From Clostridia bacterium (lineage in GTDB: Bacteria > Bacillota > Clostridia > Oscillospirales > Acutalibacteraceae): DNA of 64,000 nt. The translations under genes were made by a program, and so were the position numbers. The stretch is taken from contig JAFODS010000029.1 of NCBI GenBank assembly GCA_017380575.1, forward strand, positions 1-64,000, in the 5' to 3' direction. Below the pieces are notes generated by a model. The model was not told the DNA's origin and did not search any database. It saw only the letters and a list, made by a program, of their open reading frames with translations. Of the stretch, positions 23,910 through 28,715 are shown piece by piece (the first letter of the stretch is position 1; each line of letters opens with the position of its first letter).

Positions 23910-23959
23910 AAAAACAGGGGTAGAGTACCGAATAAGGGACTAAAAATCCGAAAAATAAC

Positions 23960-23971
23960 GAACATTTGTGT
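23960..23971. promoter_or_regulatory. Degenerate LexA-like half-site at the -35
   Basis: GAACATTTGTGT differs from GAACN4GTTY in the right arm. It overlaps the -35 of the downstream small-protein promoter. It counts only as support for the perfect site nearby. Confidence 0.4.
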
Positions 23972-23998
23972 TGACAAATTTAAATTATCTGCTATAAT
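23971..23998 (+). promoter_or_regulatory. Promoter of the 88-residue membrane protein
   Basis: TTGACA (23971-23976), a 16-base spacer and TATAAT (23993-23998), a near-consensus strong promoter that would need tight repression. Confidence 0.88.
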
Positions 23999-24010
23999 AG
24001 AACTCGTAAA

Positions 24011-24022
24011 GAACAAATGTTC
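24011..24022. promoter_or_regulatory. LexA (SOS) box
   Basis: GAACAAATGTTC is a perfect 12-base palindrome matching the Gram-positive LexA consensus GAACRNRYGTTY. It lies just downstream of the expected transcription start. A similar half-site (AATGTTCG) follows at about 24028-24035. Confidence 0.82.
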
Positions 24023-24057
24023 ACAAAATGTTCGGTTAGAATTCGGAGGTAATTATT

Positions 24058-24324
24058 ATGACATTATTATTTGCAATTAAAGTTATTCTTTCAGTTATCG
24101 CAGTTTTGTTTGTATCATACGGCTTGCTTCACGAGGACAAGGTTGTTGCTTTTGAAGATGCAGTTATAAGACTTATCAAGAAAAAGATTTATCTTCACAA
24201 GCGTCGCAAGGCTCTTGAAAAAAGACGTCAGCAGGGGAGAGTTTCTTCCGGTTACGTACGTCCGCAGTATGAAACACCCGTCAGAAGACAGGCTCCTGCA
24301 GCTGAAAGAAGAAGAGTTGCCTGA
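24058..24324 (+). CDS. Small single-TM basic protein under an SOS box
   Basis: An 88-residue protein of unrecognised family. Residues 2-23 form one TM helix (LLFAIKVILSVIAVLFVSYGLL). A short acidic stretch follows, then a strongly basic helical and disordered tail, rich in Lys/Arg (IKKKIYLHKRRKALEKRR) and ending in Arg repeats. CGGAGG precedes ATG. It is a stand-alone gene with a near-consensus promoter, a LexA-type operator and a strong terminator. Unrelated small membrane proteins of SOS regulons (YneA, SidA) block division, so a division-inhibitor role is a reasonable inference, not shown by sequence similarity. Confidence 0.75.
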   Translation: MTLLFAIKVILSVIAVLFVSYGLLHEDKVVAFEDAVIRLIKKKIYLHKRRKALEKRRQQGRVSSGYVRPQYETPVRRQAPAAERRRVA

Positions 24325-24341
24325 CAATATAATAAAATTCA

Positions 24342-24374
24342 AGCGGTGAGCTCAACCAGAGTTCACCGCTTTTT
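24342..24374. terminator. Terminator after the SOS-box small gene
   Basis: A 12-bp stem AGCGGTGAGCTC (24342-24353) with 24359-24370 (one G-T pair), loop AACCA and a TTTT tail. It lies between convergent genes. Confidence 0.92.
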
Positions 24375-28703: not shown

Positions 28704-28715
28704 AAACATTTGTTC
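28704..28715. promoter_or_regulatory. LexA (SOS) box upstream of the hydrolase-uvrB-uvrA operon
   Basis: AAACATTTGTTC, read on the other strand as GAACAAATGTTT, fits GAACRNRYGTTY fully. It shares an 11-of-12 core with the box at 24011-24022. It lies 20 bases before the -35. uvrB and uvrA are classical SOS genes. Confidence 0.78.

What the first reader, a model, noticed from the sequence alone, without database searches (positions are those of the whole stretch)
23960..24324. Candidate undescribed SOS effector: 88-residue single-TM basic protein behind a perfect LexA box
Seen: a near-consensus promoter (23971-23998) with GAACAAATGTTC at 24011-24022, a degenerate second site on the -35, a single gene and a terminator. 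The protein has one N-terminal TM and a Lys/Arg-rich tail and is unlike any family I know. Known: SOS regulons of several bacteria carry unrelated small membrane proteins that stop division (B. subtilis YneA, Caulobacter SidA). Inference: this is the lineage's own division inhibitor or damage-response protein.
Basis: partly seen in the sequence, partly recalled or inferred. Interest (0 to 1): 0.85.

Follow-up and report, generated by a model that had tools for sequence, protein, structure and literature searches.

The report
Lineage-specific SOS-induced membrane checkpoint protein
A small unnamed membrane protein, found across one family of gut-type Clostridia, sits behind a doubled switch for the bacterial DNA-damage repressor and usually ends in a conserved tail that looks like a self-destruct signal, so it is probably this lineage's own brake on cell division after DNA damage.

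Summary
In detail: a 12/12 sigma-70 promoter, a perfect GAACAAATGTTC box, a degenerate second box on the -35, one 88-aa gene, a terminator. The genome encodes LexA, and the same box core lies at lexA, at a Y-family polymerase gene and before the uvrBA stretch. The protein belongs to an unnamed family: 111 of 300 genomes sampled from its own (unnamed) family; order and class samples gave no hit outside it. Of 117 homologue loci examined, 96 have a LexA-type box within 130 bp. Conversely, the promoter word GAACATTTGTNTTGACA alone occurs once in each of 48 of 300 genomes; 45 of the 48 lie just upstream of this gene, and a 46th before a diverged version. LexA control is near certain. Conserved are the TM segment, a juxtamembrane motif (E26, F32, E33) and, unexpectedly, a C-terminal alanine (82 of 95 boxed proteins; 28 of 281 other ORFs), resembling ssrA/FtsH-type degrons. 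Many loci carry a second conserved dyad or NrdR-like boxes, hinting at further replication-stress inputs. Best reading: an SOS checkpoint protein acting in the membrane, probably a division inhibitor working like YneA/SosA but unrelated in sequence, without LysM, tail predicted inside. Function is untested.

The parts
23924..23941 (.). Upstream dyad AGTACC-N6-GGGACT; conserved second cis element, factor unknown
   Evidence: GT[AC]C-N8-G[GT]AC in 70 of 117 homologue upstream regions, 0.4% of shuffles; only AGT[AC]C-N8-G[GT]AC[AT] dyad in the window
23960..23971 (.). O1: degenerate LexA site GAACATTTGTGT overlapping the -35
   Evidence: 41 of 58 loci of the first homologue set have it
23971..23998 (+). 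Promoter TTGACA-N16-TATAAT
   Evidence: 12 of 12 consensus positions
24011..24022 (.). O2: LexA box GAACAAATGTTC downstream of the -10
   Evidence: conserved in relatives
24044..24049 (+). Shine-Dalgarno CGGAGG
   Evidence: sequence
24058..24324 (+). 88-aa single-TM protein with basic tail and C-terminal -RRRVA
24341..24371 (+). Intrinsic terminator
28704..28715 (.). Companion LexA-type box AAACATTTGTTC upstream of an isochorismatase-family gene that is followed by uvrB and uvrA

Best explanation
The gene is a LexA-repressed SOS effector, held off by two LexA sites that bracket its promoter and switched on when RecA filaments trigger LexA cleavage (regulation shown by comparative evidence; induction inferred). 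The product is a single-pass membrane protein, N-terminus out and basic tail in the cytosol (predicted). The TM segment plus the juxtamembrane motif G-x3-E-[DE]-K-x-[IV]-x-F-E is the conserved working part and most likely binds a partner in the membrane, best guess the septal synthase FtsW/FtsI or its regulators, and delays division until repair is done (inferred). The conserved C-terminal -[V/A/C/I]A is a built-in degron for FtsH or ClpXP that clears the protein on recovery (inferred).
For: LexA in the genome. LexA over the cut-off in 70 of 73 homologue genomes tested and 47 of 63 homologue-less ones tested (Fisher p 4e-4). Box within 130 bp in 50 of 58 and 46 of 59 loci, 63 of them exact, against about 0.1% exact and 3% one-mismatch in mononucleotide shuffles. 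The promoter word finds the gene independently: 45 of 48 by coordinates, a 46th by eye. Own lexA promoter has a box of this kind in 35 of 40 boxed genomes and 3 of 10 boxless ones (p 7e-4). Conserved TM and E26/F32/E33. C-terminal Ala in 82 of 95 boxed complete proteins, with all four Ala codons and three stops in use; background 28 of 281. K+R density 0.31 per residue in 26-55 against 0.05 in 1-8 (means 9.4 and 0.4). No small LysM (YneA-type) protein among 2 LysM hits of the own genome (open frames 515 and 360 aa). Small single-TM SOS division inhibitors are common in Gram-positives, and YneA targets FtsW by its TM (PMC6851548, passages; PMC13396833, abstract and first part of the discussion).
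Against: No functional datum of any kind. 21 of 117 loci lack a box within one mismatch. The inhibitors of this kind described in PMC6851548 have the C-terminus outside; here it is predicted inside, and acidic residues next to the membrane make the charge rule less clean. 13 of 95 boxed proteins do not end in Ala. 47 of 63 homologue-less genomes tested have LexA, and 22 of 30 of their lexA promoters carry a box of the same kind, so an SOS system with this operator does without the protein in many members of the same family. Genomes are related, so the p values overstate independence.
Confidence: 0.52

Rival explanations
1. SOS-induced membrane toxin or dormancy peptide (TisB/DinQ-like): the TM peptide depolarises the membrane and slows growth rather than acting on the divisome.
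For: Small, hydrophobic N-terminus, two repressor sites; E. coli has an SOS-regulated toxic single-TM peptide, DinQ (abstract in search listing).
Against: The family keeps a charged juxtamembrane motif (E26, F32, E33) and usually a tail of tens of residues, not expected of a pore peptide. Rfam at gathering thresholds found no RNA near the gene in 16 loci (one distant THF riboswitch); antisense RNA was not otherwise looked for.
Confidence: 0.17
2. A membrane anchor for the damaged nucleoid or for a repair or replication protein: the basic tail binds DNA or an acidic partner while the TM holds it to the membrane.
For: Tail net charge median +8 in 95 boxed proteins; inputs linked to replication (LexA boxes, NrdR-like boxes).
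Against: The tail is the least conserved part apart from its last residues, and its net charge is zero or negative in seven boxed members.
Confidence: 0.17
3. A general SOS-regulated envelope or stress protein (for example a modulator of a protease or transporter) with no checkpoint role.
For: Nothing in the sequence names the partner; upstream neighbours differ between the loci scanned.
Against: Two operators on one promoter, kept in most of the first homologue set (41 of 58 with O1), would suit a product that is harmful when not needed; this is weak.
Confidence: 0.11
4. The box is served by another S24-type repressor of a mobile element, and the gene is mobile cargo.
For: A HTH-S24 repressor gene with the same box exists in the genome (L060).
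Against: No hit in phage or plasmid collections or viral contigs (single-protein query); same box core at lexA and repair genes; boxed and boxless genomes differ in their lexA promoters.
Confidence: 0.03

Closest known systems
YneA (Bacillus subtilis, Listeria) and ChiZ
   Same: SOS-controlled, small, one N-terminal TM; the TM is the targeting part in YneA
   Different: YneA has an extracellular LysM domain and is cleared in part by CtpA; here no LysM and a tail predicted cytosolic. YneA itself was not compared by alignment; LysM was tested by Pfam
SosA (Staphylococcus aureus)
   Same: Short single-TM SOS protein without LysM; conserved stretch just after the TM; C-terminus governs turnover
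   Different: SosA C-terminus was shown extracellular and linked to CtpA (PMC6851548, passages); this one is predicted inside; SosA was not aligned here
SidA and DidA (Caulobacter)
   Same: Small damage-induced division inhibitors (DidA abstract in listing; SidA recalled)
   Different: Not compared in sequence here; here one gene may gather LexA and other inputs
ClpXP/FtsH C-degrons (ssrA, RseA 1-108 ending -VAA, LpxC ending -VLA)
   Same: Nonpolar Ala-ending C-terminus (table in PMC8138137, passages); own-genome ssrA tag predicted to end -MAA
   Different: Here it would be native, on an SOS membrane protein; not tested
TisB/DinQ
   Same: SOS-induced small hydrophobic proteins
   Different: Those are shorter and paired with antisense RNAs (TisB recalled; DinQ listing); here a longer conserved polar part

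Membership tests
LexA (SOS) regulon | LexA present in the genome | tested here: met
   PF01726 hit over cut-off at G000:C55 with S24 peptidase domain
LexA (SOS) regulon | Operator matching the lineage's LexA box at the promoter, conserved in orthologues | tested here: met
   96 of 117 loci
LexA (SOS) regulon | Induction by DNA damage, lexA-dependent | not testable with these tools
   needs an experiment
YneA/ChiZ-type inhibitors | LysM domain | tested here: not met
   No Pfam LysM in the protein or in the 29 relatives aligned with it
YneA/ChiZ-type inhibitors | Single N-terminal TM | tested here: met
   one hydrophobic segment near the N-terminus; no second above KD19 1.6 in 95 boxed proteins
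YneA/SosA-type inhibitors | Extracellular C-terminus | tested here: inconclusive
   K/R distribution predicts C-inside; no experiment, no dedicated topology predictor
SOS division inhibitors in general | Blocks division when expressed | not testable with these tools
   needs an experiment
Any named protein family | Curated profile match | tested here: not met
   Pfam, NCBIfam, PHROGs: scattered weak hits only; PADLOC not scanned

The most novel reading that the evidence does not exclude
One membrane checkpoint protein gathers several replication-stress signals at its promoter: LexA (DNA damage), NrdR (dNTP state) in some lineages and in one genus apparently instead of LexA, and an unidentified factor at the GT[AC]C-N8-G[GT]AC dyad. 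It acts from the cytosolic face of the membrane and carries its own C-terminal self-destruct signal, an SOS timer built differently from the described Gram-positive inhibitors.
Probability: 0.3. Interest if true: 0.85.

Novelty: new variant of a known kind. Interest (0 to 1): 0.68.

Why it matters
The SOS division block is understood in few bacteria, and its effectors are mostly unrelated from lineage to lineage. This adds a well-bounded protein family with a sharp regulatory signature in a large, little-studied group of Clostridia, and gives directly testable predictions: induction, a membrane partner, orientation, and a two-residue degron. If the NrdR input is real, it would link nucleotide supply to a division checkpoint.

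Tried and rejected
Chance box: rejected by conservation and by the independent promoter search. Mobile cargo: no hits in viral contigs, phages or plasmids. A YneA-like gene beside lexA in homologue-less genomes: I looked at 30 lexA loci there with a crude LysM regular expression and none was flagged; so no complementary pattern. Two operator types within the family: my first count suggested that homologue-less genomes lack the box at lexA, but that count ignored AAACN4GTTT; with the criterion it is 22 of 30, so I dropped that idea. Dyad as a terminator: some copies extend to a T-run (L209, L213, by eye), most do not; not settled. Dyad or gene as part of an Rfam RNA: 16 loci gave one distant THF riboswitch only. 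NrdR-like boxes belonging to a neighbouring reductase gene: of 19 upstream neighbours scanned none is a reductase; 12 have Pfam domains (YebC, tRNA synthetase, two HAD, AraC, two 2-hydroxyacid dehydrogenases, three Obg, two dUTPase) and 7 have none; the two dUTPase genes are divergent and could own the box there.

Limits. Distribution counts are lower bounds for a short protein; at most 13 candidates per genome were scored in the order and class searches and 17 in the family search. Most homologues come from fragmented, unnamed assemblies. Start codons were chosen by script. L047 (frame broken) and truncated L053 were left out of C-terminus counts. Not all places were fetched; 117 loci were examined in all. 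Alignment A2 left out the boxless weak hits L087, L088, L089, L095 and L103, which leans it towards boxed members; still recovered boxless ones. LexA was tested in 73 homologue genomes (72 of the 111, plus G138) and in 63 of the 189 without a match, chosen mainly for completeness. NrdR itself was not searched for, and the NrdR box consensus is recalled.

Full report
Observation. The window has, on the + strand, a 12-of-12 sigma-70 promoter at 23971-23998, GAACAAATGTTC at 24011-24022, GAACATTTGTGT at 23960-23971 over the -35, an 88-codon ORF at 24058-24324 with a good Shine-Dalgarno, and a terminator at 24341-24371. Upstream is a 2-hydroxyacid dehydrogenase gene and downstream, convergent, a metallophosphoesterase gene.

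Is the box real? The loose motif GAACN4GTTY is common in this genome (165 strand matches against 408 for the reversed control), so a box alone would prove little. The core GAACAAATGTTY has 8 sites against 3 for the reversed control. They are the window gene; the isochorismatase-uvrB-uvrA stretch of the same window; a Y-family polymerase gene; a HTH-S24 repressor region; a region with a C5 DNA methylase; one site inside a coding frame (L059); and two at other genes (L016, L065). The genome encodes LexA, and the lexA promoter has AAACAAATGTTT. Published C. difficile boxes for lexA and recA share the ACAAATGTT core (PMC4234289, passages).

Relatives. tblastn finds the protein in 43 of 300 genomes sampled from the same unnamed family, own genome included. 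Two more relatives, 73% and 70% identical, are in Clostridia MAGs from water deer gut. A profile (A2, 35 rows) finds it in 111 of 300, 49 of 135 genera. In samples of 394 genomes of the order and 391 of the class the 14 and 2 genomes with a hit all belong to the same family; at most 13 candidates per genome were scored there, so absence elsewhere is not proven. Pfam, NCBIfam and PHROGs know no such family.

Promoter conservation. I examined 117 loci. A site within one mismatch of GAACN4GTTC lies within 130 bp of the start in 50 of 58 loci of the first set and 46 of 59 of the profile-only set; 34 and 29 are exact. Mononucleotide shuffles give about 0.1% exact and 3% one-mismatch. In the first set 41 of 58 have O1 on the -35; the O1-O2 distance is 50-51 or 55-56 bp in 34 of these 41. 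The converse test is the strongest. GAACATTTGTNTTGACA, used alone, occurs in 48 of 300 genomes, one place each, with no control match in the rows shown. By coordinates 45 of the 48 lie less than 200 bp upstream of a place found by the protein profile, on the same strand. At a 46th, G138, I read a diverged TM protein that the profile missed, behind a GAACGAATGTTC box and again ending -NAA; this assignment is by eye. The other two (L140, L155) lack such a gene.

Trans factor. LexA over the cut-off is in 70 of 73 homologue genomes tested and 47 of 63 homologue-less ones tested (p 4e-4). Of the three without it, G273 is boxed but in 410 contigs, while G092 and G001 are boxless. The lexA promoter carries a box of this kind within 200 bp in 35 of 40 boxed genomes, 3 of 10 boxless ones and 4 of 5 with an ATAT-core variant; the criterion there also admits AAACN4GTTT and its chance rate was not measured. 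In homologue-less genomes it is 22 of 30 by the same criterion, so the operator is shared more widely than the gene. In three genomes of genus g53 the LexA recognition helix has changed and the gene has no box. These are counts of related genomes, not independent events.

The protein. In 95 boxed complete proteins there is one hydrophobic segment near the N-terminus and no second above KD19 1.6. K+R density is 0.31 per residue in positions 26-55 and 0.05 in 1-8 (means 9.4 of 30 and 0.4 of 8), so the tail is predicted inside; acidic residues directly after the TM make this less certain. In 35 diverse sequences E26 and E33 are invariant and F32 nearly so; in the first 30, M1, E26, F32, E33 and the C-terminal Ala are invariant and G22 nearly so. 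The tail between varies in length and sequence. Yet 82 of 95 end in Ala, 75 of these with V, C, A or I before it; all four Ala codons and all three stops occur, so selection acts on the protein. Of 281 ORFs of at least 150 codons from the loci then held, 28 end in Ala. Of the 13 exceptions most have short tails. Ala-ending nonpolar C-termini are known degrons of ClpXP and FtsH (table in PMC8138137, passages), and the own ssrA tag is predicted to end -MAA. If the tail were outside after all, the same ending might suit CtpA-type proteases, which act on SosA and YneA (PMC6851548, passages).

Other inputs. A dyad GT[AC]C-N8-G[GT]AC lies upstream in 70 of 117 loci (shuffles 0.4%), including the window (23924-23941); in 20 loci a -10-like hexamer follows at a constant 10 bp. 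In the sequences then held, dyad plus spaced -10 occurs as 26 distinct matches, 22 inside the 200-bp upstream regions and, by position, the other four 210-350 bp upstream of homologues; those sequences are centred on this gene, so this is no genome-wide count. In 19 of 117 loci a site matches 12 or more of 14 positions of the NrdR box (consensus recalled), against 1 of 117 shuffled ones. In three loci of genus g128 it sits in the core promoter and there is no LexA box. The upstream neighbours of 19 such loci include no reductase gene. NrdR is described as a dATP-responsive repressor of ribonucleotide reductase genes (PMC4409342, passages); I did not search for NrdR in these genomes. This suggests that the gene is wired to replication stress in more ways than LexA.

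Function. Shown by comparison: LexA-type operators conserved at this gene; the family, its TM, motif and C-terminus. Inferred: induction, orientation, degron, target. Small single-TM SOS proteins that block division are common in Gram-positives (PMC6851548, passages), and YneA binds TM7 of FtsW with its TM (PMC13396833, abstract and first part of the discussion). The own genome (88.8% complete) has 2 LysM hits, both in long frames. I hold about 0.95 for LexA control, about 0.5 for a division-checkpoint role and about 0.5 for a degron function of the C-terminus.

Novelty. Literature searches returned no paper that by its listing describes this family or an SOS effector of this lineage; listings were cut (10 of 13 and 10 of 46), and subscription papers are mostly not held. 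I file it as a new variant of a known kind: it may work like YneA or SosA, but it is not a YneA (no LysM).

Noticed in passing
window 28704-28715: AAACATTTGTTC upstream of an isochorismatase-family gene that is followed by uvrB and uvrA: a LexA-type site for excision-repair genes with an unexpected hydrolase first.
   Followed up: partly
L060 (G000:C28), L064 (G000:C44): Perfect GAACAAATGTTC sites beside a HTH-S24 repressor gene and beside a region with a C5 DNA methylase gene, suggesting SOS-tied mobile elements.
   Followed up: partly
L087, L088, L089, L103: Boxless paralogue-like hits; L088 and L089 lie about 3.4 kb apart on one contig and share the TM plus EDKLVDFE motif, possibly element-borne copies.
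   Followed up: no
upstream regions of 70 homologue loci; window 23924-23941: GT[AC]C-N8-G[GT]AC dyad of unknown factor, in 20 loci exactly 10 bp from a -10-like hexamer.
   Followed up: partly
L203, L206, L207 (genus g128): NrdR-like box in the core promoter where no LexA box is seen.
   Followed up: partly
L298, L299, L300 (genus g53): LexA with a diverged recognition helix (GISCATVQRYL instead of GLKSTSSVQANL), implying a changed operator.
   Followed up: no
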